Shown: one piece after another, positions 34,186-46,398 of the stretch
How the letters are laid out: every line of letters starts with the position of its first letter
Position numbering within the stretch: the first letter of the stretch is position 1
Notes under the pieces: model-generated
The model's database searches: none
The model's input: the letters and a program-made list of their open reading frames with translations, nothing else
What the model was told of the DNA's origin: nothing
Assembly: GCA_001801995.1 (NCBI GenBank)
Contig: MGZB01000056.1
Span: 1 to 64,000, forward strand
Length of the DNA stretch: 64,000 bases
Source of the DNA: Gammaproteobacteria bacterium RIFOXYD12_FULL_61_37
GTDB lineage: Bacteria > Pseudomonadota > Gammaproteobacteria > Chromatiales > Chromatiaceae
Reading direction: 5' to 3'
Made by a program: the position numbers and the translations under genes

Positions 34186-34914
34186 ATGGACGCAACCCTG
34201 CTATTCGACATCCTGGCCGACGAGAGCCGTAGAAAGCTGATTCTACTGCTGTTCAACGGCGGCGAGCAGTGTGTCTGCCACTTATACACCGCGCTGAATA
34301 TTCCCCAGCCCAAGGCATCTCGCCACTTGGCGGTGATGCGCGAGGCGGGGCTGGTGACCGCCCGCCGCGAGGGGAAATGGATGCACTACCGCCTCAATCC
34401 CCAGATGCCGCTCTGGTGCTACCGAGTCCTGGAGGCGATGCGCGACGGCTATCCCGAAGTCGAGGCGCCGGGCGCGGCCTGTGAAACACCCCACACCTTG
34501 GAGCCGGCGATGAAAACCGTTCTGATCCTCTGTACCGGAAACTCCTGCCGCTCCCAGATGGGTGAGGCGCTGATCAATCACGACCTGACCGGGCGGGTCC
34601 GCGCCCTCTCCGCAGGCACCCGGCCCCAGCCCAAGGTGGCCGATGGCGCCATCGAGGCCCTGCGCCTGGCTGGCGTCTCCACGGAAGACCTCTACCCCAA
34701 GGACGTGGACCAGCTACTGGATCAGGAGATCGATCTGGTGGTCAGCGTCTGCGACAACGCCAAGGAGAGCTGCCCGATCTTTCCACGCCCGGTTCGCTCG
34801 ATTCATCTCCCTTTCCACGATCCCCACGGCGAGCCGCTGGAGTCATTTATCCGTGTGCGGGATGACATCCGCGCCCGGCTCATTCCGGCGGTGGTCGGGG
34901 CGCTGGAACTCTAA
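34186..34914 (+). CDS. ArsR repressor fused to ArsC arsenate reductase
   Basis: A 242-residue fusion. Residues 1-90 are an ArsR/SmtB winged helix (LFDILADESRRKLILLL); the arsenite-sensing cysteines are in GGEQCVCHLY, close to the classic ELCVCDL. Residues about 108-242 are a low-molecular-weight phosphatase-type arsenate reductase: P-loop LCTGNSCRSQMGEAL, then VVSVCDNAKESCPIFP and HLPFHDP. It couples arsenic sensing with reduction of As(V) to As(III) for Acr3. The start directly follows the promoter, so translation may be leaderless. Confidence 0.9.
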   Translation: MDATLLFDILADESRRKLILLLFNGGEQCVCHLYTALNIPQPKASRHLAVMREAGLVTARREGKWMHYRLNPQMPLWCYRVLEAMRDGYPEVEAPGAACETPHTLEPAMKTVLILCTGNSCRSQMGEALINHDLTGRVRALSAGTRPQPKVADGAIEALRLAGVSTEDLYPKDVDQLLDQEIDLVVSVCDNAKESCPIFPRPVRSIHLPFHDPHGEPLESFIRVRDDIRARLIPAVVGALEL

Positions 34915-34917
34915 CCC

Positions 34918-35139
34918 ATGAATACGCCCACCCTGCTGTCCACCCTCACCTGCCCCGAATGCGGCCACCGGCGCGAAGAGACCATGCCCACCGACGCCTG
35001 CCAGTGGTATTACCAATGCCAGGGCTGCGGCGCGTTGCTGCGTCCCAAGCCGAGGGACTGCTGCGTCTTCTGTTCCTACGGCACGGTCCCCTGCCCGCCG
35101 GTGCAAGAGCACGGCAAGACCGGCCACTGTTGCTGCTGA
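34918..35139 (+). CDS. GDCCVxC-type cysteine-rich protein
   Basis: A 73-residue protein with 11 or more cysteines: CPECGH, CQGCGALLRP, then RDCCVFCSYGTVPCPP and a tail ending HCCC. It matches a small family marked by the GDCCVxC motif (here RDCCVFC), found near arsenic genes in other bacteria and sometimes a selenoprotein. It probably binds metal or arsenite; its role is unproved. Three bases separate it from the arsR-arsC fusion and 16 from acr3. Confidence 0.8.
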   Translation: MNTPTLLSTLTCPECGHRREETMPTDACQWYYQCQGCGALLRPKPRDCCVFCSYGTVPCPPVQEHGKTGHCCC

Positions 35140-35155
35140 CTCCACGAGGTTCTTC

Positions 35156-36220
35156 ATGAGCGTCCCCTGTGAAATCACCGCCCAAGCCGCCGCCGGGGCG
35201 GAACTGGGCTTCTTCGAACGCTGGCTGACCCTCTGGGTCTTCTTCTGCATTGGCACCGGCATCGCTTTGGGGCAGCTCCTGCCCTCCCCTTTCCAGGCCC
35301 TGGGAAAAATGGAGCTGGCCCAGGTCAACATCCCGGTGGGGCTGCTGATCTGGGTGATGATCGTCCCCATGTTGATGAAGATCGACTTTTCGGCCCTGCA
35401 CGAGGTGCGCCGCCACGCCCGCGGCATCGGCGTGACCCTGTTCGTCAACTGGGCGGTGAAGCCCTTCTCCATGGCGCTCTTGGCCTGGCTCTTCATCCGC
35501 CAGCTCTTCGCCCCCTGGTTGCCCGCCGAACAGTTGGATAGCTACGTCGCCGGGCTGATCCTACTGGCCGCTGCCCCCTGCACGGCCATGGTCTTCGTCT
35601 GGAGCCACCTCACCAAGGGCGAACCGCTTTTTACCCTGACCCAGGTGGCCCTGAACGACAGCATCATGGTCTTCGCCTTCGCCCCCCTCGTCGGGCTGCT
35701 GCTGGGCATCTCCGCCATCGCCGTCCCCTGGGACACCCTCTTCCTCTCGGTGGTGCTCTATATCCTCATCCCGGTGGCCATCGCCCAGGCCGCCCGCGCC
35801 TGGCTGCTCAAGGGCGGACAGGCCCGATTCGACCGGGCCATGGCGGCGCTGCACCCCTGGTCCCTCTCGGCGCTGTTGCTGACGCTGGTGTTGCTGTTCG
35901 CCTTCCAGGGCCGGGCGATCCTGGAACAGCCACTCGTCATTGTCCTGCTGGCCGTGCCGACCCTGGTGCAGGTCCTCTTCAACTCGGGGCTGGCCTATTG
36001 GCTCAACCGGCGACTGGGCGTGGAGCACTGCGTGGCAGGTCCCTCCGCCCTCATCGGCGCCTCCAACTTCTTCGAACTGGCGGTGGCCGCAGCCATCTCC
36101 CTCTTCGGCTTCGAGTCCGGCGCGGCCCTCGCCACCGTGGTAGGGGTACTCATCGAGGTGCCGGTGATGCTGCTGGTAGTGCGGGTGGTGAATCGGAGTA
36201 AGGGGTGGTACGAGTCATGA
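35156..36220 (+). CDS. Acr3 family arsenite efflux permease
   Basis: A 354-residue membrane protein of about ten spans. The signature is LLAAAPCTAMVFVWSHLTKG with its conserved cysteine, plus VPMLMKIDFSALHEV and ALIGASNFFELAVAAAISLFG. It exports arsenite driven by the membrane potential, disposing of the product of the upstream arsenate reductase. It is the last gene of this block; the restriction-like operon begins 100 bases beyond on the opposite strand. Confidence 0.94.
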   Translation: MSVPCEITAQAAAGAELGFFERWLTLWVFFCIGTGIALGQLLPSPFQALGKMELAQVNIPVGLLIWVMIVPMLMKIDFSALHEVRRHARGIGVTLFVNWAVKPFSMALLAWLFIRQLFAPWLPAEQLDSYVAGLILLAAAPCTAMVFVWSHLTKGEPLFTLTQVALNDSIMVFAFAPLVGLLLGISAIAVPWDTLFLSVVLYILIPVAIAQAARAWLLKGGQARFDRAMAALHPWSLSALLLTLVLLFAFQGRAILEQPLVIVLLAVPTLVQVLFNSGLAYWLNRRLGVEHCVAGPSALIGASNFFELAVAAAISLFGFESGAALATVVGVLIEVPVMLLVVRVVNRSKGWYES

Positions 36221-36319
36221 GCAGGGTTTGGCGTTGTAGACCATGCACTGCCTGATGACCGCCTAGACTGCCCACGAGACCGATACTGAGATTGGTCGAG
36301 CCAGAAAATTTCGCCATGC

Positions 36320-37501
36320 TCAATCCACCAACCGAGCCGACTTCGGATCATAGACCACCTCGGTAATCGACCCATTCCGAATGCGTTCAACCGCTTCGTT
36401 AATGACATGGAGCGGCACTAGGAACCATTCTCTCGGCTTCACTGGATTTCCGAAACGGTCTTCGATGGTCAAGTCGAGCTGCGCTACGCCGAACAAACGG
36501 TGGAAAATGTTTTCCAGCCTGGTGCGGTTCAGATTGTGGAGTTTGTAGGTGGCGACCACCTCCACGTCGGCCAACAGATAGGTGGCGTCCTTTTCCGCAT
36601 TTGCGATGCGCGTCTCGACCTTGCCGCCGGTCACGCCGATCTTGTGGATCAGCTCGCGGTGTTCGGCGACGAATGGATGGCTGGACAGGCTGCGCAGCAC
36701 ATAGATGGTTCCGGTTTCAATGTCGTCTGGCTCGGGTGCATCACCAAACAGCGGCCCCATGTCCGGGTCGGTCAGGCGGCGGCCGGTGTCGTCCTTGTAG
36801 AGCGCCCGCTCTAGGGATCGCCGCAGCAAGTTGCTTTCTGTGCCATTGGCGTAGATCACGCGCAAGCGAGCATCGTTTTTCCCATACGCAGCCTTGATGG
36901 TTTCACCCACTTCGGCCACATACGCAAGCTGCCCGCCGACAATGAAGTAGTTCCCGCTGGCAATACTGGTATCGCGTCCGAAGCGTAGCGTTATGCGAAT
37001 GCCAGCCTTCAACTCCCGCTCCACCTGCTCAAACAGCGGTTGGAACTTGTCAAAATCCGCACACGGCGTGCGGTCGGCGATTTCTTCTGCTGCACGTTTT
37101 TCAACGCTAGAACGCACATGACGCAGCACAGTGATATCGCTTTGATCGGAGGGTTCAGCGCCAATCCCCAGTTGGGCCAGCAAGGCATCTTCGTCCAAGT
37201 CATCCACATCGGTCAGGCCCGCTGCCGCGCCGGACAGCAGGCCGGGGCCATCCAATCCGGCCAGCAGGGTTTGCGCTTCCGGCAACTTGCGTAGCTGATC
37301 CAGGCGCACGGCATACAGGCGCTCGAAGATGTCACGGCCCTCGCTATGCATCGGGGCGCGACCATGCGCTTGATGGAAGCGCAGGATATCCTCGAAGCCA
37401 GCGATGATGCGTTCCTCGCGCGGGGTTCGGCTGGAAGGCTTGAGCGGGGCGACTTCTACACCCAGCGCATCCAGCAGCTCGTCATCGTCCATCTCAGCCA
37501 T
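36320..37501 (-). CDS. GIY-YIG (T5orf172/MUG113-like) nuclease-family protein
   Basis: A 393-residue protein. The C-terminal part (about 255-345) looks like a GIY-YIG fold of the T5orf172 type: GTIYVLRSL, IHKIGVTGG, VETRIANAEKD, then HNLNRTRLENIFHRLFG with the catalytic Glu candidate. The N-terminal half has acidic helices (MAEMDDDELLDALG; DLDEDALLAQLG). It is the last gene of the four-gene operon, overlapping the helicase by eight bases, with AAGGAG upstream of the ATG at 37501. It is the likely DNA-cleaving or processing component. Confidence 0.78.
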   Translation of the reverse strand: MAEMDDDELLDALGVEVAPLKPSSRTPREERIIAGFEDILRFHQAHGRAPMHSEGRDIFERLYAVRLDQLRKLPEAQTLLAGLDGPGLLSGAAAGLTDVDDLDEDALLAQLGIGAEPSDQSDITVLRHVRSSVEKRAAEEIADRTPCADFDKFQPLFEQVERELKAGIRITLRFGRDTSIASGNYFIVGGQLAYVAEVGETIKAAYGKNDARLRVIYANGTESNLLRRSLERALYKDDTGRRLTDPDMGPLFGDAPEPDDIETGTIYVLRSLSSHPFVAEHRELIHKIGVTGGKVETRIANAEKDATYLLADVEVVATYKLHNLNRTRLENIFHRLFGVAQLDLTIEDRFGNPVKPREWFLVPLHVINEAVERIRNGSITEVVYDPKSARLVD

Positions 37502-39602
37502 TGCTGGGATCTCCTTGCGCCTGTGCCGCCTTCGCTTGTGCGCGGTAGCGAGTCAGCGCAGCCACGCCTTCGGCCATGCGCTTTTCCCACGCATCGGCGG
37601 AATTGATGTCCGGCAGGCGGCCACGCTCGTTCTTGAACTGCAAGGCACGCTTTGCCAGCTCGCGGGCCTCGTCCTCGGGGATGCCCACCTTCTTGGCGGC
37701 AATGCTGGCCTGCACCTGGCGCAACGATTTCTCATCCATCGCTTTCGCCAACACCGCATAGGCAGCATCGAAGGGGTTGATGCGGTCGATCAGGTCGATG
37801 TCCAGGTCGCGCACGTTGACGAACTTGCGCACCCCATCCAGCAAGGCCGTCGTGCCTTGCATGGCGCCGTCGCCATTCGCGTCGGCTTGGGCCAGCGCCA
37901 GCTTGGCCTGCTGCGTGATGTTCATGGCGGCGATGGCGTGTTGGCGAATCGCCTCCTGGTCGCCCTCGCTCAATTCCGGGTAACGCTCGCGCACGATCTT
38001 GCCCATGCGCAACTGGGTCAGCTCTTCGGGCAAAGTGTTTTCCTGGTCGAACAGGCCGCGCTCCAGCACGGTCTTGTCCTGCAAGAAACTGGTGACGACT
38101 TCGTTCAGGTCCTCCTTGCAGATGCGCGTGGCTTCCGGGCTTTGCGGCGTTGCCAGTCCGTTGATCTCCAGATGGATCTGACCAGTATCCTTGTTCACCC
38201 CGATGTTGTGGCCGCCATCCTTGTAGCCTTCCTCGCCGTAATCAAAGCCATCCTTCGGGCCGTTGTTTTTGGGCGTGAACTCATAGCGCGGCGCCAGCAC
38301 CTGCTCCATCAGCAAGCTGGCGGAAATGGCCTTGAGCATATCGTTCACCGCCTCGGCTACGGCGGCCTGTTCGGCTGCGGGTTCGGCGATCAAGTTGGTG
38401 AAGCGCGCCCGTTCCTTGCCCTCGGCATCGCGGGTGGCGCGGCCTATGATCTGGACAATTTCAGTGAGACTGCTGCGGTAGCCTATGGTCAACGCATGTT
38501 CGCACCAGATCCAGTCAAAGCCTTCCTTCGCCATGCCCAGCGCAATGATGATGTCCACGTGGTCGCGGTTTTCTTTCTGCGCCGGGTCTTTCAACGCAGC
38601 CAGCACGCGGGAACGCATGGCGAGGTCGCTGTCGTCCACCAAGTCGGCCACCTTCAGCACGCGACCGTCCTTGCTTTGTATTTGATGGAAGCCGGTGGCT
38701 GGGTCAACGCCTTTCCATTCACCCAGGCCGTGCATGATTTCATTCACCTCGCGCTCCTTGTCTTTCAGGCTTTCGCGGGCATTCACATTGGGAATATGGA
38801 TGATGGTTTTCAGCGCCGGGTCCAACACCTTGGTGACGGCATCAACGTAAGTGCCTGTGTAGAAGAAATAGCCGATGTCCAGCGACTTGAGCCATTGGTA
38901 GCCGTTGAGCTGCTCGTAGTAGGTGTAAGTGATCGTCTCGAACCGGGCCTCATCCGCCGGCCCCAACACGGCCTCGCTGTCGCCACGGAAGTAGGAGCCG
39001 GTCATGGCCACCAGATGCACCTTGTCGCGGGCGATGAACGCGCCCAACTGACTGCCCAGCACATTGCACGGGTTGCTGGAGACGTGGTGGAACTCGTCGA
39101 TGGCGATCAGGCGGTTGTCGAAAGCCTCGACGCCCAGCTCCTCCACCGCAAAGCGGAAGGTCGCATGGGTGCAAACCAGCAACTTGTCGGTGCTCTCCAG
39201 AAACTTGCGCACCGCGTCCACCTTGGATTTGGCCACGCGCGGCTCATCCACGCCAGGGGCGTTGCACAGGTTCCACTGCGGGGCGACCTGCCAATCCCAA
39301 TAAAAGCCGAACTGGCTCAAGGGTTCATCGGCAAAGCTGCCGCCGATGGAACGCTCCGGCACCACGATGATGGCCTGTTGCAAGCCCTGGTTGTTGAGCT
39401 TATCCAGCGCGATGAACATCAGCGCGCGAGATTTGCCCGATGCCGGTGGCGATTTGATCAGCAGATACTGCTCGCCGCGCTTGGCGTAGGCGCGCTCCTG
39501 CATGGCGCGCATCCCCAGCGCGTTGGCCTTGGCTGAAGCACCGGTGCGCGCCGTGATGATGGACACTGACGGCACGGTGTAAGTGTTGGTCGGGTTGGTC
39601 AT
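37494..39602 (-). CDS. superfamily 2 DEAD/DEAH helicase, restriction-like
   Basis: A 702-residue SF2 helicase resembling type III restriction (Res) motor subunits. Motif I is SPPASGKSRAL, motif II IAIDEFHHVS, motif III-like LVAMTGSYF, and motif VI EIVQIIGRATRD. The region after about 480 is helical and unassigned. It would translocate on DNA for the methyltransferase and nuclease partners. Overlaps of four bases with the DUF1016 gene and eight with the GIY-YIG gene show tight coupling. Ribosome site GGAGGA nine bases before the ATG. Confidence 0.85.
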   Translation of the reverse strand: MTNPTNTYTVPSVSIITARTGASAKANALGMRAMQERAYAKRGEQYLLIKSPPASGKSRALMFIALDKLNNQGLQQAIIVVPERSIGGSFADEPLSQFGFYWDWQVAPQWNLCNAPGVDEPRVAKSKVDAVRKFLESTDKLLVCTHATFRFAVEELGVEAFDNRLIAIDEFHHVSSNPCNVLGSQLGAFIARDKVHLVAMTGSYFRGDSEAVLGPADEARFETITYTYYEQLNGYQWLKSLDIGYFFYTGTYVDAVTKVLDPALKTIIHIPNVNARESLKDKEREVNEIMHGLGEWKGVDPATGFHQIQSKDGRVLKVADLVDDSDLAMRSRVLAALKDPAQKENRDHVDIIIALGMAKEGFDWIWCEHALTIGYRSSLTEIVQIIGRATRDAEGKERARFTNLIAEPAAEQAAVAEAVNDMLKAISASLLMEQVLAPRYEFTPKNNGPKDGFDYGEEGYKDGGHNIGVNKDTGQIHLEINGLATPQSPEATRICKEDLNEVVTSFLQDKTVLERGLFDQENTLPEELTQLRMGKIVRERYPELSEGDQEAIRQHAIAAMNITQQAKLALAQADANGDGAMQGTTALLDGVRKFVNVRDLDIDLIDRINPFDAAYAVLAKAMDEKSLRQVQASIAAKKVGIPEDEARELAKRALQFKNERGRLPDINSADAWEKRMAEGVAALTRYRAQAKAAQAQGDPSNG

Positions 39603-40672
39603 TGCGAATCGTCCTCCGTGGATATGTCGTCGCCTGCCAGTTCGCGCTCGATCTGCTCGATGCTGGGCAGGCTGGTTTGCAGCTCGGCAGGCAGGGATTC
39701 GAGCAATTTATATTCGGCAATACCCATGGGCTGGGACTTATCGCCCAAGGCATATTCGGCCACAACCTTGTTTTTGCTCTTGCAGAGCAAGAGGCCAATG
39801 GTTGGGTTGTCGTGCTCGCTTTTGACCTGGCGATCCACAGTGGTCAGATAAAACCCAAGCTGACCCAGATGCTCGGGTTTGAATTTACCGCCCTTGAGTT
39901 CGATCACCACATAGCAGCGCAGCTTCAGGTGGTAGAACAACAGGTCAATGAAAAACTCATCGCCGCCCACATCCAGCAACACCTGTCGCCCGACAAACGC
40001 AAAACCTGCCCCCAGCTCCAGCAGGAATTCGGTGACATGCTTCACCAAGGCATTTTCAATCTCGCGCTCACCCGCCTCGCGGCTGAGCCCTAGGAAGTCA
40101 AAGCGGTACGGGTCTTTCAATGACTCGCGGGCCAGGTCAGATTGCGGTTTGGGCAAGCTGACATCAAAGTTGGTGACGGCCTTGCCTGTGCGTTCCAGCA
40201 AGCGAGTTTCGATATGGATATTCAGCACATTGCGCGACCAGCCGTGCGTGATGGTGCTCTGGGCATAGGCCAGGCGCTGCTGCGAATCTTTCAGCCGGGT
40301 GAGCAGCACCAAGTTATGCCCCCAGGGCAATTGTCCAACAGCCTGTTGGACAATTGCGGCATCCGGCCACGCCTCGGCAAAGGCCCGCATGTACATCAGG
40401 TTGGCGCGGGAAAACCCCTTCATTTCAGGAAAGGCGGTGCGCAAATCATGCGCCAGCCGCTCGATCACCTTGGCACCCCAGCCCTGCTCGGCCTGCCGCG
40501 CCAGAATGTCGCGCCCGATTTGCCAGTACAGCAGCACCAGTTCGCGGTTGACCGCCAGAGTGGCGCGCTGCTGGGCGGTGTGGATACGGCCCTTGAGATC
40601 GGCCAGCCAGTCGGCATAACCTGCGGGTGGTGAAATCAGGCTGATAGGCACATCACTGGGTTTCTGGCTCAT
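39599..40672 (-). CDS. DUF1016 (YhcG-like) PD-(D/E)XK nuclease
   Basis: A 357-residue protein with the DUF1016 layout. The N-terminal helical domain (about 15-170) contains YWQIGRDIL, RANLMYMRAFAEAWP and the conserved QLPWGHN. The C-terminal nuclease domain (about 185-340) has the core DEFFIDLLFYHLKLRCYVVIELK, giving D-ExK residues. DUF1016 proteins often accompany restriction systems. Four-base overlaps on both sides place it inside the operon. A 29-base palindrome lies in the QLPWG coding region. The ribosome site is GGGAGGA. Confidence 0.88.
   Translation of the reverse strand: MSQKPSDVPISLISPPAGYADWLADLKGRIHTAQQRATLAVNRELVLLYWQIGRDILARQAEQGWGAKVIERLAHDLRTAFPEMKGFSRANLMYMRAFAEAWPDAAIVQQAVGQLPWGHNLVLLTRLKDSQQRLAYAQSTITHGWSRNVLNIHIETRLLERTGKAVTNFDVSLPKPQSDLARESLKDPYRFDFLGLSREAGEREIENALVKHVTEFLLELGAGFAFVGRQVLLDVGGDEFFIDLLFYHLKLRCYVVIELKGGKFKPEHLGQLGFYLTTVDRQVKSEHDNPTIGLLLCKSKNKVVAEYALGDKSQPMGIAEYKLLESLPAELQTSLPSIEQIERELAGDDISTEDDSQ
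40328..40356. repeat. 29-base perfect palindrome inside the DUF1016 gene
   Basis: CAATTGTCCAACAG (40328-40341) and its exact complement (40343-40356) flank one central base. It encodes the IVQQAVGQL part of a conserved DUF1016 motif, so it is coding sequence, not an insertion. Confidence 0.75.
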
Positions 40673-43509
40673 GCTTTCCTCCCTTTGCTTGTAACGGCTC
40701 CCTCGCCCCGCTGCCGGGGAGAGGGTTGGGGTGAGGGGCGTTTGGCCGCCGCCGTCATCTTGGTATAAAGCTCAAACAGTTTTTCCAGCCGCTCGGTGTC
40801 GTTCTTGAAGCGGCGACCAATGTAGATGCGCTCCAGCACTTCGTCGTTGCGCTCGTGGGCGTGACGCAGGTTCTCCGGCATGGTGTCCGGGTCATACAGG
40901 TCGGCGTTGGTGGCAGGAAAATGCACCTCGCGGGCGAGCAGGATGTATTCGGCGCACGCGGTTAGATCCGCCTTGTTTTGTTCAGTTAGCTTGGGGGCAG
41001 GGAAGTTGTTGTAAGAAAGCTTTACCGAGTACCTATACCCATCCCCTAACCTACCAGAGGTAGTTGCAAGCCAAACATTGTGCATTTTCGATGAAACAAT
41101 AGACAGCGTAACTAAATCAGAATCGTAGATTGCAAATGCGTCTACGTTTATAACGTTACCCGGAGGAATGAGCACTGCGGGGATATAAGTCCTTCCTGAG
41201 GAGCTTGTCTTTGGCAATGCAATCGCAAGAGCGTCTTGATACGTCCTGTAACAAAACCTGTGGGGCCTATCAGCTACTTTTTTTGCGTCTCTTCCAGCAT
41301 TTTTTCGATACTCTTTGCATTTGACAACTCGATCATATATTGGCCTGATACTTAATGCTGCGTCAGTGTCTTCATCTGAAATCCATAAACAATACCTATA
41401 TGTATCTTTAAGGATGTCATTACCCCCAATGTATCTTCGAATAAATTCTTTCGATTCTGGATAATCCAATATTATCTTTTTGGCTTCATCGCTCGTTAGA
41501 ACCAAATTTGTGCCATCCACAGGATTACTGCCCATGCACATAGTAGGCAATCCGTTGATTGGCTCAGATATCGACTCTATTAATATGTTTGGGGCATCTA
41601 CCAAATAAGGGTTTATGTTTTCGGCGTATTTTTTTGTTTCAGATGAAAATAAAATCTTTTTTTGATTTTTCTTTCGACCGATCCCAATTATTGTGCATAC
41701 AACCCCAGCATTGTTACTTGCGTTGTTACTCCATTTAAATGGTTCGTAAGCAAATGCAATCTCCAAATCACAATTAAATATATGCGGCCACAGCAGTGCG
41801 ACCTGTTCGCCTTGGCATATAGAGCTTGTACACACGAATGCGGCTTGAGCCTGACTATATTTTTCGTACTCGGTGAACTTAAATAACCAGGAGCAAACAT
41901 AATCTAGCTGCAATAGGTCTCCCAAACCGATTGCCACCATGTCTTCCTTTTGTTCCTTGTTTAGCTTTTTCCCTCCAATATATGGGGGGTTGCCACAGAT
42001 ATACGTTTCACCACCCTCGTTCTCAAAACCAATTTTCGCTTGGTCAATCGGTGAGTTAAATAAATCGTCGCCAAGTATTTTGGTTTCCGTACCAGTTGGG
42101 GGGCAGATCGAAAGCCAATCAAGCCGCAGTGCATTGCCGCAAACAATCCAGTTCTGCGCATCCAGCGGCAGAAACTCCGCCAGTGCATCCTTCTGTCCGC
42201 GATACAGTACGTCGCACTGGAACTCGGCAATGATGAGCGCCAAGCGCGCAATCTCTGCCGGAAAGTCACGCAGTTCGATGCCCCGGAAATTGGTCAGTGG
42301 TATCTCGCTGCCCAGATGAAGTTCGTCCCGGCGGTGGTTGATTTCTGCTTCGATCTCGCGCATCTGTTTATAGGCGATGACCAGGAAATTGCCGGAGCCA
42401 CAAGCCGGGTCAAACACGCGGATGCGCGCCATGCGCTTGCGCAAATTCAGCAGCTTGATTTTGTTATCGCCCGCCTCATTCAAAGCGGCGCGCAGATCGT
42501 CCAGGAACAGGGGGTTCAACACCTTGAGGATGTTGGGCACGCTGGTGTAGTGCATGCCCAAGGCGCCGCGCTCTTCGTCGTCGGCCACGGCCTGGATCAT
42601 GCTGCCGAAGATGTCGGGGTTGATCTGTTTCCAGTTCAGGTTGCCGGCGTGGATCAGGTAGGTGCGCGCCATGCGGGTGAAGCGCGGCACGTCGGTTGCG
42701 CCGGAGAACAGGCCGCCATTCACATAGGGGAATTGATCCGCCCACGGTCTGAGGGGTAGGTCGGGTTTTAACCCGACATCGCCTGTCGGAATAAATTCCG
42801 ACCTACACAGCGCACGACGCGCCTCAATCGACGTGTTCATGGCGCGAAAAATTTCGGACAGCACCGTATGGGTGTTGCTGCCGTCGCGCTCGCTCATCTG
42901 CTCGACGGCGTGGGTGAATAAGCCTTCGCCGTTGAAGATGTCGGTGTCTTCGGCAAAGAAGCAAAACACCAGCCGGGCCATGAAGTGGTTCATGTCGGCT
43001 CGGCGCTCGTCCCTGGCCCAGTCCGGGTTCTCGCGCAGCAGTTCGACGTACAGCTTGTTCAGCCGCCCGGTGGCGCGCACGTCAACGGGGTTGTCCTTGA
43101 TCTCCTTGATGGTGGAGATGCCGGCCAGCGGCAGGAAGAAGCCGAAATGGTTGGGAAAGTCCGGGTAAGCGCAAGCGATGGTTTCGCCACCGGCCAGATC
43201 TTCGGCCTCCAGGGTCTGCCCATCCGTGGCGAGGATGAACTTGGCCTTGGCTTTTATCGTGGCGGGACTGGCGCGCAACGCCTTGAGGGTTTCGCCCACG
43301 GTACTGGCTTCGCACACGGCAATATGGACATTGTTGCGCTGGAGTACGCCACCCGGCACATCCGATGCATTGTTGTTGCCAGACCGCAGGCGCTTGAGCG
43401 CCGTGTCCTTATTGCCGAAAGCGGCCAAAAACGCGAACGGGAACTCCGCCGCATCGAAGGGCTGAAGGGCCAGGTCCGATATGGCTTCTTCGATTTCTAC
43501 TGCATTCAT
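40669..43509 (-). CDS. class I SAM-dependent DNA methyltransferase (N6-adenine type)
   Basis: A 946-residue methyltransferase. An N-terminal domain (about 1-330) includes FCFFAEDTDIF. The SAM-binding motif I is RVFDPACGSGNFLVIAYKQM, and catalytic motif IV is ICGNPPYIGG, typical of N6-adenine methylation. The C-terminal 350 residues should carry target recognition. The ATG at 43509 (MNAVEIEEAI) matches the family start; another in-frame ATG is at 43533. Two oddities: a 51-base palindromic repeat adds 17 residues in frame (42756-42806), and the C-terminal half (about 40.96-42.1 kb) is clearly more AT-rich than the rest. First gene of the operon. Confidence 0.87.
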   Translation of the reverse strand: MNAVEIEEAISDLALQPFDAAEFPFAFLAAFGNKDTALKRLRSGNNNASDVPGGVLQRNNVHIAVCEASTVGETLKALRASPATIKAKAKFILATDGQTLEAEDLAGGETIACAYPDFPNHFGFFLPLAGISTIKEIKDNPVDVRATGRLNKLYVELLRENPDWARDERRADMNHFMARLVFCFFAEDTDIFNGEGLFTHAVEQMSERDGSNTHTVLSEIFRAMNTSIEARRALCRSEFIPTGDVGLKPDLPLRPWADQFPYVNGGLFSGATDVPRFTRMARTYLIHAGNLNWKQINPDIFGSMIQAVADDEERGALGMHYTSVPNILKVLNPLFLDDLRAALNEAGDNKIKLLNLRKRMARIRVFDPACGSGNFLVIAYKQMREIEAEINHRRDELHLGSEIPLTNFRGIELRDFPAEIARLALIIAEFQCDVLYRGQKDALAEFLPLDAQNWIVCGNALRLDWLSICPPTGTETKILGDDLFNSPIDQAKIGFENEGGETYICGNPPYIGGKKLNKEQKEDMVAIGLGDLLQLDYVCSWLFKFTEYEKYSQAQAAFVCTSSICQGEQVALLWPHIFNCDLEIAFAYEPFKWSNNASNNAGVVCTIIGIGRKKNQKKILFSSETKKYAENINPYLVDAPNILIESISEPINGLPTMCMGSNPVDGTNLVLTSDEAKKIILDYPESKEFIRRYIGGNDILKDTYRYCLWISDEDTDAALSIRPIYDRVVKCKEYRKNAGRDAKKVADRPHRFCYRTYQDALAIALPKTSSSGRTYIPAVLIPPGNVINVDAFAIYDSDLVTLSIVSSKMHNVWLATTSGRLGDGYRYSVKLSYNNFPAPKLTEQNKADLTACAEYILLAREVHFPATNADLYDPDTMPENLRHAHERNDEVLERIYIGRRFKNDTERLEKLFELYTKMTAAAKRPSPQPSPRQRGEGAVTSKGRKA
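42756..42806. repeat. 51-base REP-like palindromic repeat inserted in frame in the methyltransferase gene
   Basis: GTAGGTCGG (42756-42764) pairs with CCGACCTAC (42798-42806). Inside are two smaller hairpins: TCGGGTT/AACCCGA (42761-42776) and GTCGGAAT/ATTCCGAC (42785-42802). The sequence type is a common intergenic repeat in proteobacteria. Here its 51 bases encode 17 residues (RSEFIPTGDVGLKPDL region) without breaking the frame. Confidence 0.75.
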
Positions 43510-43909
43510 GTTTCTACGGAACTCATGGGGCAACTTGCCTGTGTGATGTTCCCCCGCCCGTACCCGGCGGAGGTCCAGTGACTGCTTGGCACTACGGGTG
43601 GGGCCATTGTAAATGCTTGTCCGTACGCCCTTGTAATGTTTCGGGAGCTATTATGCTGCGCGTGTTTCACATTAACCGGTCCTGGCGATCCGCCACCCCC
43701 TGCATCCTTTCGTGGGTTTGCGCGTCTCCCTTGATGTCAGGCGCCTGACGCCCCCCGATCTTGAGGGAAGAGTACCCATGCCTGACCGGACCCGCCCTGC
43801 AAGGAGTTTGGGCATTGGCGGGACAACGATTACAAGAATGCGCCCTGAGCTTTTCAGTGCCCTGCGAATTGAAGGTGATTCAATATTCTTTGTTGGAGAA
43901 AATGCAATC
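43510..43909. other. non-coding gap between restriction-like operon and ArsP-like permease
   Basis: No gene supported; the in-frame extension of the permease upstream to 43712 is not family-like. On the minus strand TACAAT (43611 to 43606) with TTACAA about 19 bases upstream is a weak promoter candidate for the methyltransferase operon. Near the permease start, GTTGGAGAA gives a ribosome site. Confidence 0.45.
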
Positions 43910-45277
43910 ATGACGACCTCGAACCCCACCCCTATCGCCGCCTGGCAGACGCGGCTGCGTCAGACTGTGCAGGAGAACCCTACCGAACTGCGTTGGCTGG
44001 TTTGGATGATTGGCCTCTTCCTGCTGGCCTTCTTCCTGCCGGTGGGTACGCCGCGCTTCGACAACGCAGTGCTGGAGGGCTTGGCCCTGCTGCATTGGTA
44101 TGCCCGCGAGCATGTGATCCTCTGCCTGATCCCGGCCTTCCTCATCGCCGGGGCCATCGCGGTCTTCGTCAGCCGGGACGCGGTGATGAAGTACCTGGGC
44201 CCCGGCGCCAACAAGTTCGCGGCCTATGGGGTCGCCTCGGTCTCCGGCTCGATCCTGGCGGTCTGCTCCTGCACCGTGCTGCCGCTCTTCGGCGGCATCT
44301 ACCGGCGCGGGGCCGGGCTGGGACCGGCGGTCGCCTTCTTGTACGCCGGACCGGCCATCAACGTGCTGGCGGTGGTGCTGACGGCCAAGGTGCTGGGGGC
44401 GGATCTGGGGATCGCCCGCGCCCTGGGGGCGGTGGCCTTCTCCCTGGTGATCGGCGGGATCATGCACGGGATCTACCGTCGAGAAGAGGCGGCGCGGGCG
44501 GGGGCCGCGAAGGGATTCGTCAGCGGCGATGGTCCGGAGCGGCCGCTCGCCGAGACAACGGCCTTTTTCGCCTTGCAGATCGCCGTGCTGGTCTTCGCCA
44601 ACTGGGCACCGGCCAGTGCCGAGGAGAGCGCGCTTTGGCATGGTTTGTATACCTGGAAATGGCCTTTGACCGCCCTGGCGGGGCTGGGTCTGGCGGGTCT
44701 GTTGATCCTCCGCTGGCGCTGGCATTGGCAGCCCCTCGCCGCTACCGCTCTACTGGTCGCCTTGCTGGCCGGCATCTTCCCGCAATACCCGGAGATCGCC
44801 TTCTCTGCCGGTCTGCTCGGTCTGACCCTGTCCGCTTCCTTCCAGCCTGGCGACGGGGAGGAGTGGCTGGGACAGAGCTGGGGCTTCGCCAAGCTGATCC
44901 TGCCCCTGCTGCTGGGCGGGGTGCTGCTGGCGGGGTTCCTGTTGGGGCGTCCCGGCCAAGAGGGGATCATCCCCTCCGAATGGGTTAACGCGGCGGTGGG
45001 GGGCAATGGGCTGGGGGCCAACTTCCTGGCCGCCCTGGCCGGGGTCTTCATGTACTTCGCCACCCTGACCGAGATCCCCATCGTCCAGGGCCTGATGGGT
45101 GCGGGCATGGGGAAGGGTCCGGCCCTGGCCCTGCTGCTGGCGGGTCCCGCCCTGTCGCTCCCCTCCATGCTGGTGATCCGCAGCATCCTGGGCACGGAGA
45201 AGACCCTGGTCTATTGCACACTGGTGGTGGTCATGGCGGCCCTCACCGGCCTGTTGTTCGGCACCTTTTACCCCTGA
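43910..45277 (+). CDS. ArsP-like permease (DUF318/COG0701 family)
   Basis: A 455-residue membrane protein with about ten spans. The family cysteine motif is ILAVCSCTVLPLFGGIYRRG, and a second copy of the fold appears in the C-terminal half (ATLTEIPIVQGLMGAGMGKGP). ArsP members export trivalent organoarsenicals; others of this broad family move different substrates. The arsM gene two places downstream supports export of methylated arsenite. Start at 43910 after GGAGAA; the open frame runs 66 codons further upstream without membrane sequence. Confidence 0.82.
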   Translation: MTTSNPTPIAAWQTRLRQTVQENPTELRWLVWMIGLFLLAFFLPVGTPRFDNAVLEGLALLHWYAREHVILCLIPAFLIAGAIAVFVSRDAVMKYLGPGANKFAAYGVASVSGSILAVCSCTVLPLFGGIYRRGAGLGPAVAFLYAGPAINVLAVVLTAKVLGADLGIARALGAVAFSLVIGGIMHGIYRREEAARAGAAKGFVSGDGPERPLAETTAFFALQIAVLVFANWAPASAEESALWHGLYTWKWPLTALAGLGLAGLLILRWRWHWQPLAATALLVALLAGIFPQYPEIAFSAGLLGLTLSASFQPGDGEEWLGQSWGFAKLILPLLLGGVLLAGFLLGRPGQEGIIPSEWVNAAVGGNGLGANFLAALAGVFMYFATLTEIPIVQGLMGAGMGKGPALALLLAGPALSLPSMLVIRSILGTEKTLVYCTLVVVMAALTGLLFGTFYP

Positions 45278-45287
45278 GGTTCAAATC

Positions 45288-45575
45288 ATGATCCAGATCC
45301 AGATCTACGGCACCGGCTGTGCCAAATGCACCCAGCTCTCCCAGCACGCCGAGGCCGCCGCCCAGGCCCTGGGGCTCGAATACCAGATCGAAAAGATCAG
45401 CGACATCAACGCCATCATCGACGCCGGGATCATGTCCACCCCCGGTCTCGGGCTAAACGGCGAGGTCAAGAGCACGGGCAAGGTCCTGACGGTCGAGTCC
45501 ATCAAGGCCCTGTTGCAGCAGCGGCCGGACCCCTTTGCCCAGATCGACATCCGAACCGGCGGTGGTTGCTGTTGA
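45288..45575 (+). CDS. small thioredoxin-fold redox protein
   Basis: A 95-residue protein of the redox-active-disulfide-2 type: the active site is [11 protein letters not shown] (CxxC), the cis-Pro region [11 protein letters not shown] and an extra vicinal cysteine pair at the C-terminus (GGGCC). It lies 10 bases after the permease gene and 37 before arsM. It may reduce the permease or arsenic intermediates; this is inference from position. Confidence 0.82.
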
Positions 45576-45612
45576 TCCCAGATCCACGTCACACCAGAAG
45601 AGAGGCCTGATT

Positions 45613-46398
45613 ATGACCAAAGCCGACGCCGATTCCCTCCGCCAGGCAGTCCGCACTTTCTACGCCGCCACCGCCCAGGCTGATGCCACCGGCTGTTGCG
45701 CCACGGGAAGCTGTTACGCCCCCACCCCTACCCTCTCCACAGCCTTGGGTTACAGCGCCGAGGAGCTGGCCGCCGTGCCCGAGGGGGCCAACCTGGGCCT
45801 CGGCTGCGGCAATCCCCAAGCCATCGCGGCCCTGCGGCCGGGCGAATGCGTGCTCGATCTGGGCAGCGGCGCGGGATTCGACTGCTTCCTCGCCGCCCGC
45901 GCCGTGGGTACGGAGGGGCGCGTCATCGGCGTGGACATGACCCCGGAGATGCTGGCCAAGGCCCGCGCCAATGCGGCCAAATCCGGTCTGAACAACGTCG
46001 AGTTCCGCCTGGGCGAGATCGAGCACCTGCCGGTGGCGGACGCCTCGGTGGACGTGATCCTCTCCAACTGCGTCATCAACCTCTCGCCGGACAAGCCCCA
46101 GGTCTTCGCCGAGGCCTTCCGGGTGTTGCGCCCCGGCGGCCGGCTGGCCATCTCCGATGTGGTCGCGCTGGTCGAGTTGCCCGAGGCGATGCGCCAGGAC
46201 CTCGCCCTCTACACCGGCTGTATGGGCGGGGCCTCGCGCATCGAGGAGGTGGAGGCGATGCTGAAAGCAGCGGGTTTCGTCGAGACGCGGGTGGTCCCGA
46301 AAGCGGAGAGCCGCGAATTCATCCGCGACTGGGCGCCGGACCGGCCGGTGACCGACTATCTGGTATCGGCCAGTATCGAGGGCATCAAGCCCGCCTGA
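45613..46398 (+). CDS. arsM: ArsM, arsenite S-adenosylmethionine methyltransferase
   Basis: A 261-residue enzyme methylating As(III) with SAM. Cysteines are visible in [30 protein letters not shown] and TGCMGGA; the family uses such conserved cysteines to bind arsenite. The SAM motif is [15 protein letters not shown]. The ATG at 45613 is preferred; the longer frame from 45535 overlaps the thioredoxin gene. Products could leave by the ArsP-like permease. Confidence 0.93.

What the first reader, a model, noticed from the sequence alone, without database searches (positions are those of the whole stretch)
36320..43509. Four-gene restriction-like operon: methyltransferase, DUF1016 nuclease, SF2 helicase, GIY-YIG protein
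All four genes are on one strand with 4-, 4- and 8-base overlaps, implying fixed stoichiometry. The operon holds a modification enzyme, a DNA motor and two different nuclease folds. It does not match the gene content of type I, DISARM or BREX systems as I know them. It is a candidate composite defence system in which DUF1016 is an integral part rather than a neighbour.
Basis: partly seen in the sequence, partly recalled or inferred. Interest (0 to 1): 0.75.

Follow-up and report, generated by a model that had tools for sequence, protein, structure and literature searches.

The report
Split restriction operon with cargo nuclease
The operon is a known three-gene bacterial DNA-defence core that has picked up an optional fourth nuclease gene, and that extra gene carries an unexpected DNA palindrome whose two halves change together across many bacteria.

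Summary
In detail: four co-directional genes overlapping by 4, 4 and 8 bases. Three form a described core: an MmeI-like methyltransferase lacking its nuclease motif, an SF2 motor and a GIY-YIG nuclease, as in OspHL35III (PMC4752239) and dnmA-yeeB-yeeC (PMC9973331). DUF1016 is optional: of the 80 best helicase loci, 78 have the methyltransferase, 77 the GIY-YIG gene, 10 DUF1016. The same slot takes RhuM, Schlafen-AlbA_2, GmrSD_N, PDDEXK_4 or Fic genes, or DUF1016 remnants. I read it as translocating restriction-modification plus an optional guard nuclease.

The surprise is inside DUF1016: a 31-bp palindrome (40327-40357). At 129 distinct homologous sites the arms co-vary: 89.7% paired, 16-30% when one arm is slid by 1-3 bases. 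A set anchored blind to it replicated this, with examples in seven phyla. G-T and A-C mismatches are equally rare (15 and 18 of 903), pointing to DNA rather than RNA. RhuM genes carry their own. My searches found no description. Function is unproven.

The parts
40669..43509 (-). MmeI-family m6A-type DNA methyltransferase with single target-recognition domain; N-terminal nuclease motif not conserved
   Evidence: Pfam MmeI_N, _hel, _Mtase, _TRD, _C; DPACGSGNF 76 of 76, NPP 76 of 76, no conserved ExK
40987..41598 (-). target-recognition domain (residues 646-849 counted from TTG 43533), most variable part; overlaps a low-GC block
   Evidence: Pfam; TRD identity 30-63% against 73-86% elsewhere among 10 methyltransferases; GC 0.407 at 41000-41999
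39599..40672 (-). DUF1016/YhcG PD-(D/E)XK nuclease, optional passenger of the methyltransferase-helicase slot
   Evidence: Pfam; D..ELK..Q in 15 of 15; slot survey
40327..40357 (.). palindrome inside DUF1016 (15 + 1 + 15 bp, perfect arms) encoding residues around 106-116; co-varying in homologues
37494..39602 (-). SF2 helicase/translocase
   Evidence: motifs I, II, V, VI almost invariant in 95 homologues; Pfam DEAD/ResIII just under cut-off
36320..37501 (-). GIY-YIG (T5orf172/MUG113) nuclease, C-terminal catalytic domain at about 36377-36712
   Evidence: Pfam; Y, KIG, R, E, H in 87 of 87

Best explanation
A split MmeI-type restriction-modification system with one optional passenger. The methyltransferase marks a short site and its single recognition domain also tells the rest where to act. 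Its own nuclease has decayed, so cutting is handed to the SF2 motor, which translocates from unmodified sites, and to the GIY-YIG subunit, which cuts. The DUF1016 nuclease occupies a slot between methyltransferase and helicase that in relatives also takes other defence-type genes; in the window 4-base overlaps keep it coupled to both neighbours. I think it is a backup or guard that acts when restriction is blocked, by analogy with PrrC in a type IC locus. Shown here: gene content, order, conserved motifs, loss of the ExK motif, optional DUF1016, cargo slot, variable TRD. Inferred: methylation, translocation, cleavage, the guard role.
For: Core order in 78 and 77 of 80 loci; motifs conserved; described prototypes (PMC4752239, PMC9973331 passages); slot with DUF1016, RhuM, AlbA_2, GmrSD_N, PDDEXK_4, Fic; DUF1016 remnants; DUF1016 label changes at least 10 times on the helicase tree; DUF1016 82% but helicase 70% identical in G001; DUF1016 beside type I M or S genes on three of eight plasmids opened; TRD variable and low-GC; genes embedded in RM loci as guards, PrrC (PMC12707154 passages).
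Against: The B. subtilis relatives did not restrict the phages or the plasmid tested (PMC9973331, PMC7261158, passages). No activity was measured. DUF1016 is clustered on the tree (0 of 500 shuffles as low), so it is not a wholly random passenger. The guard role has no direct evidence.
Confidence: 0.72

Rival explanations
1. One reading: a four-component defence complex in which DUF1016 is a required subunit.
For: Four-gene order recurs in distant hosts, on a plasmid and on a predicted viral contig, with intact DUF1016 motifs; DUF1016 is clustered on the helicase tree.
Against: 70 of 80 loci lack it; the same slot takes unrelated genes; remnants; 64 of 67 class genomes with DUF1016 have none next to this helicase.
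Confidence: 0.1
2. A relic: the methyltransferase works as an orphan and the rest is decaying.
For: Conclusion drawn for B. subtilis dnmA-yeeB-yeeC (PMC9973331, passages).
Against: Helicase and GIY-YIG catalytic residues are conserved across 95 and 87 homologues, the window's included; variable TRD suggests continuing selection on specificity; PMC9973331 reports, from a study I did not read, that deletions in Vibrio crassostreae raised sensitivity to some phages.
Confidence: 0.13
3. For the palindrome: an mRNA hairpin that controls expression of DUF1016.
For: Stems nearly perfect with a relaxed central pair: 47 of 71 paired at offset 1 against 67-70 of 71 at offsets 3-8.
Against: No excess of G-T over A-C mismatches: 15 and 18 of 903 pooled, though 12 and 7 in the replication set alone; no Rfam family there.
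Confidence: 0.15
4. For the palindrome: no function; an old palindrome whose arms are kept alike by template-switch or conversion-type mutation.
For: Two-arm changes far outnumber one-arm changes in disjoint nearest pairs (97 both-paired, 23 one-arm, 9 both-unpaired; pairs preselected as palindromic); E. coli alleles differ in unit number.
Against: Same codon position and phase across phyla and in a second unrelated family; absent from the same pipeline in the three core genes; peptide changes are paid to keep symmetry.
Confidence: 0.3

Closest known systems
OspHL35III-type split Type IIG-like systems (PMC4752239, S4 Fig legend, read as a passage)
   Same: MmeI-like methyltransferase/TRD without endonuclease motif, separate translocase, separate GIY-YIG protein
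   Different: The description has three proteins; here DUF1016 is inserted between methyltransferase and helicase
dnmA-yeeB-yeeC of Bacillus subtilis (PMC9973331, PMC7261158, passages)
   Same: Same three families in the same order
   Different: No DUF1016 reported; found inactive as RM in the conditions tested
PrrC embedded in the type IC locus ecoprrI (PMC12707154, passage)
   Same: An accessory effector gene inside an RM operon
   Different: PrrC is a tRNA anticodon nuclease; DUF1016 has a PD-(D/E)XK nuclease domain and no tested trigger
PADLOC PDC-S02
   Same: DUF1016/YhcG models, E down to 4e-168
   Different: Listed as a phage-defence candidate; nothing about this operon or a palindrome in the model table
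Rickettsia palindromic elements (mentioned in PMC4316617, passage)
   Same: Palindromic DNA read through inside genes
   Different: Described there as selfish elements of about 100-150 nt at many sites; here about 23-31 bp at one codon position of a family, with co-varying arms

Membership tests
[quoted passage not shown]
   (no conserved ExK in 76 homologues; not aligned directly to active MmeI residues, one search found no match)
Split MmeI-type RM (OspHL35III / dnmA-yeeB-yeeC) | Separate translocase and GIY-YIG proteins downstream, same strand | tested here: met
Split MmeI-type RM (OspHL35III / dnmA-yeeB-yeeC) | Sequence-specific methylation and restriction of unmodified DNA | not testable with these tools
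   needs experiment
DISARM | DUF1998 protein (DrmB) with helicase (DrmA); definition recalled | tested here: not met
   none of the four proteins matches such a model; only a weak DrmMI match of the methyltransferase
BREX | PglZ and BrxC/PglY proteins; definition recalled | tested here: not met
   none among the four proteins; PglX matches only far below cut-off (26 bits against 500)
Type I RM | Separate HsdS with two TRDs and HsdR; definition recalled | tested here: not met
   no S or R protein among the four; single MmeI TRD in the methyltransferase
DUF1016/YhcG nuclease family | DUF1016_N plus YhcG_C with PD-(D/E)XK residues | tested here: met
Known structured RNA | Match to an Rfam family at the palindrome | tested here: not met
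   only one sub-threshold match in 36000-44000, elsewhere

The most novel reading that the evidence does not exclude
Two unrelated gene families that ride in restriction-modification operons, the DUF1016/YhcG nucleases and RhuM, each carry inside the reading frame a DNA palindrome of about 23-31 bp at a fixed codon position whose two arms co-evolve while the sequence and the encoded peptide vary. It acts as DNA (cruciform, hairpin or symmetric binding site), not as RNA or peptide, and is probably the site through which the gene is recognised by its own product or by a host recombination or cleavage activity, and so is controlled or moved between operons.
Probability: 0.5. Interest if true: 0.85.

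Novelty: new variant of a known kind. Interest (0 to 1): 0.62.

Why it matters
The operon shows that split MmeI-type restriction systems have a cargo slot, a ready place to look for guard and backup effectors. The palindrome, if functional, would be a DNA-level signal hidden in the coding sequence of a widespread nuclease family of unknown role. It gives a concrete handle (one short element, many natural variants, E. coli alleles with one to three copies) for finding out what YhcG and RhuM do and how such genes move between restriction systems.

Tried and rejected
Rejected: the palindrome as the target of the operon's methyltransferase. The window and L031 share the identical palindrome core but their TRDs are 35% identical. 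I had noticed that the window's arms contain a sequence fitting the MmeI site TCCRAC (site recalled, from no call); I dropped it for that reason and because E. coli yhcG has no methyltransferase gene among its annotated neighbours.

Rejected: a repeat dispersed in the genome. One copy only in the own genome at up to 3 mismatches.

Rejected: a general feature of the operon or of slot cargo. In 83 methyltransferase, 97 helicase and 89 GIY-YIG genes no alignment column holds more than 4, 9 and 7 of the best palindromes, against 12 of 15 for DUF1016. In single genes set against 20 codon shuffles, three AlbA_2, the GmrSD_N, L051, Fic, PDDEXK_4, L073 and L076 cargo genes did not exceed their shuffles; L053 (7 against 6.5) and L071 (9 against 7.5) did slightly; two RhuM genes did (12 against 10.0 and 9.5).

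Against the palindrome claim: of 84 discovery ORFs the gene's strongest palindrome lies at the expected column or within two of it in 59; others sit at columns that may be shifted by insertions, and some genes have none. For the discovery statistics I dropped 11 ORFs (no suitably phased palindrome among their best three, or too near an end) and 2 duplicates, so those 71 are selected. The replication set (65 new distinct ORFs, 3 dropped for a gap at the centre column, 62 used) was anchored by protein alignment alone; 9 of its 62 rows have 5 or fewer of 11 pairs, three of them E. coli alleles whose units lie elsewhere (L208, L209, L210), one of them Parabacteroides (L238). The palindromic genes paired were preselected as palindromic.

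Led nowhere: PDB sequence searches with helicase, GIY-YIG and methyltransferase N-terminus; phage records gave only DUF1016 under 60% identity. Fold search: the best matches are EndoMS/NucS, but TM-scores by query are 0.22-0.25, so it says little beyond the nuclease fold.
Full report
1. What is there. The four genes, their strand and their overlaps (4, 4, 8 bases) are as stated. Pfam gives a complete MmeI domain set for the methyltransferase, DUF1016_N plus YhcG_C for the second gene, DEAD/ResIII just under the curated cut-offs for the third and T5orf172/MUG113 (GIY-YIG) for the fourth. PADLOC's best models are a type IIG enzyme for the methyltransferase and PDC-S02, a phage-defence candidate, for DUF1016; the helicase has only weak matches and the GIY-YIG protein none. 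Conserved motifs: methyltransferase DPACGSGNF and NPP in 76 of 76; helicase Walker A, DEFHH and GRATRD almost invariant in 95; GIY-YIG Y, KIG, R, E and H in 87 of 87; DUF1016 D..ELK in 15 of 15. The MmeI N-terminal domain shows no conserved ExK: E75 is in 49% and position 77 is G in 89% (rows shorter than 800, 600, 330 and 300 residues were left out). I could not align this stretch directly to MmeI's active residues.

2. Is the core known? Yes. [quoted passage not shown] PMC9973331 and PMC7261158 (passages) describe dnmA-yeeB-yeeC of B. subtilis, conserved in that order, and found no restriction in their tests. PMC9973331 reports, from a study I did not read, that deletions in Vibrio crassostreae raised sensitivity to some phages.

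3. Is DUF1016 part of it? The helicase scan found at least 582 relatives and kept the best 80, which are biased to near kin. Of those 80, 78 have the methyltransferase upstream (not L006, L065) and 77 the GIY-YIG gene downstream (not L006, L025, L037; the last two end at the contig edge). Between methyltransferase and helicase 41 have at most 100 bases and 37 more; 10 of the 37 hold DUF1016. Slot proteins of at least 120 residues fall into 17 clusters besides DUF1016; I scanned one member of 10 of them: Schlafen-AlbA_2, GmrSD_N, RhuM, PDDEXK_4 and Fic were recognised, five had no Pfam hit. L016 holds DUF1016 and an AlbA_2 gene together. DUF1016 remnants were found in L017, L045, L050, L010, L011 and L013, and a palindrome alone before the helicase in L006. 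On a quick helicase tree of 95 rows the DUF1016 label changes at least 10 times, 4 forced by starred branches, though it is clustered (0 of 500 shuffles as low). In genome G001, of the same genus, DUF1016 is 82% but helicase 70% identical to the window's. In an even draw of the class the helicase is in 13 of 369 genomes, DUF1016 in 67 of 369, the two adjacent in G000, G264 and G336. Of 480 plasmid records with a DUF1016 match I opened eight: one has the four-gene operon, three have DUF1016 beside type I M or S genes, one lies near methyltransferase genes, three show none nearby or have no annotation. DUF1016 is therefore an optional passenger of restriction loci, not random debris: its motif is intact and the four-gene form recurs.

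4. How it most likely works. A single-TRD methyltransferase that lost its nuclease, with an SF2 motor and a nuclease subunit, works in outline like type I, ISP or III enzymes (mechanisms recalled): recognition through the methyltransferase, ATP-driven translocation from unmodified sites, cleavage by GIY-YIG. PMC7261158 notes that a type I-like scheme had been suggested. The TRD is the most variable part (30-63% identity against 73-86% for the rest among 10 methyltransferases, one of them, L022, without DUF1016 in its slot), and in the window it overlaps a low-GC block (0.407 at 41000-41999, which also takes in the end of the methyltransferase domain), as expected if specificity is swapped by recombination. 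DUF1016 as guard or backup is inference by analogy with PrrC (PMC12707154, passages).

5. The unexpected element. The DUF1016 gene contains a perfect 15+1+15 palindrome at 40327-40357, scoring 15 against at most 7.5 in 20 codon shuffles of the same gene. In homologues the site is again a palindrome but with other letters. Discovery set: 84 ORFs; in 59 the gene's best palindrome is at the site within two columns. For 71 selected unique sites 10.0 of 11 positions (offsets 2-12) pair; arm swaps between genes give 5.73 (maximum 6.39 in 1000); codon resampling gives 5.31; 68 of 71 genes have p at most 0.01. Replication set: 65 new distinct ORFs, 62 usable, anchored by protein alignment only: 8.77 against 5.45 (maximum 6.23 in 2000); 53 rows have 8 or more pairs, 9 have 5 or fewer. 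Besides Pseudomonadota, plasmid genes of Deinococcota (L233, 10 of 11), Actinomycetota (L234, 9), Cyanobacteriota (L237, 11), Fusobacteriota (L236, 11), Bacteroidota (L235, 8; but L238, 5) and Spirochaetota (L239, 8) were read. Pooled, 129 unique sites: 89.7% paired at offsets 3-10, 16-30% when one arm is slid by 1-3 bases; 52 different 7-nt half-sites among 99 sites perfect at offsets 3-8; 15 G-T and 18 A-C mismatches in 903 cells. In 57 disjoint nearest pairs of palindromic genes 97 positions changed on both arms and stayed paired, 23 changed on one arm, 9 on both without pairing. The lack of a G-T excess argues against an RNA stem; in the replication set alone G-T is 12 and A-C 7, so the argument rests on the pooled figure.

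6. Copy number and a second family. E. coli K-12 yhcG has three such units 39 bases apart; the seven alleles inspected carry one, two or three, with arms that differ symmetrically between units and alleles and a few one-arm mutations. RhuM, another slot cargo, shows the same behaviour: in 31 of 35 genes the best palindrome is at one column and phase; 32 unique sites pair at 10.03 of 11 against 6.25 for swapped arms (maximum 7.53 in 2000). The three core genes show nothing of the kind. Scanning 1.40 Mb of the 80 loci and the window found 68 palindromes of score 11 or more, 43 of them in ORFs of at least 150 residues; the largest cluster, 10, is DUF1016 and RhuM, no other cluster exceeds 2, and an eleventh hit also matches DUF1016.

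7. What it is not. Not the methyltransferase's target, not dispersed in the genome, not an Rfam family. The AlphaFold model (mean pLDDT 84, pTM 0.59) puts residues 105-117 at a short helix and the turn before helix 117-126 of the all-helical N-terminal half. I cannot decide between a symmetric binding site, a cruciform or hairpin recognised by structure, and maintenance by template switching.

8. Literature. DUF1016 is in 10 held papers, listing seen, one of them opened by passages (PMC4316617); YhcG with palindrom- in 4, listing seen, two opened by passages (PMC4316617, PMC7967276); RhuM with palindrom- in 34, 15 listed, most of those on unrelated subjects, none opened; DUF1016 with methyltransferase, GIY-YIG and helicase in none. 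Nothing I saw describes the element. bioRxiv and most subscription journals are not held, so absence from print is not established.

9. Verdict. The palindrome raises the interest of the locus well above that of the operon.

Noticed in passing
L173 12828-13955 (E. coli K-12 yhcG) and alleles L204-L209: One to three tandem palindromic units with 39-base period at the DUF1016 palindrome site, arms differing symmetrically between units and alleles; K-12 unit 1 has a one-arm mutation.
   Followed up: partly
L013 7830-8858, L023 5067-6077, L240-L269: RhuM genes, another slot cargo, carry a co-varying palindrome at a fixed codon position of their own.
   Followed up: partly
L011 4684-4770: Two DUF1016-type palindromes stand between methyltransferase and an AlbA_2 gene although no DUF1016 gene was found there.
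   Followed up: partly
L170, L171: Predicted viral contigs (57 kb) carry the whole four-gene operon; the two stretches are identical and their DUF1016 DNA equals that of Stutzerimonas L031.
   Followed up: partly
window 34186-36220 and 43712-46398: The operon sits, in opposite orientation, between arsenic-type genes: ArsR-phosphatase fusion and SBF/ACR3-like transporter on one side, ArsP-type permease, thioredoxin and a methyltransferase on the other.
   Followed up: no
window 42756-42806: An inverted repeat (23-base arms, 83% complementary, 5-base spacer) read through inside the methyltransferase at its helical spacer; looks like an inserted repeat.
   Followed up: no
window 40700-40745: The methyltransferase's last residues are encoded by a GC-rich repeat-like tail (RPSPQPSPRQRGEG) seen in none of the eleven close relatives with abutting genes printed.
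   Followed up: no
window 41000-41999: GC falls to 0.407 from about 0.59 around the target-recognition domain, as if it were a recent import.
   Followed up: partly
own genome, contig C44 (39890-40138 and 50972-51946): A second DUF1016 gene (39% identical) and a RhuM match lie about 11 kb apart on another contig.
   Followed up: no
E. coli yhcG positions 385-406 (rows H108-H119): Several E. coli alleles break off at or begin inside palindromic unit 3, one with a transposase annotated just behind (L211).
   Followed up: no
L071 8201-8995: A slot protein without Pfam hit has 11-base perfect arms around a 7-base loop near its start, slightly above its codon shuffles.
   Followed up: no
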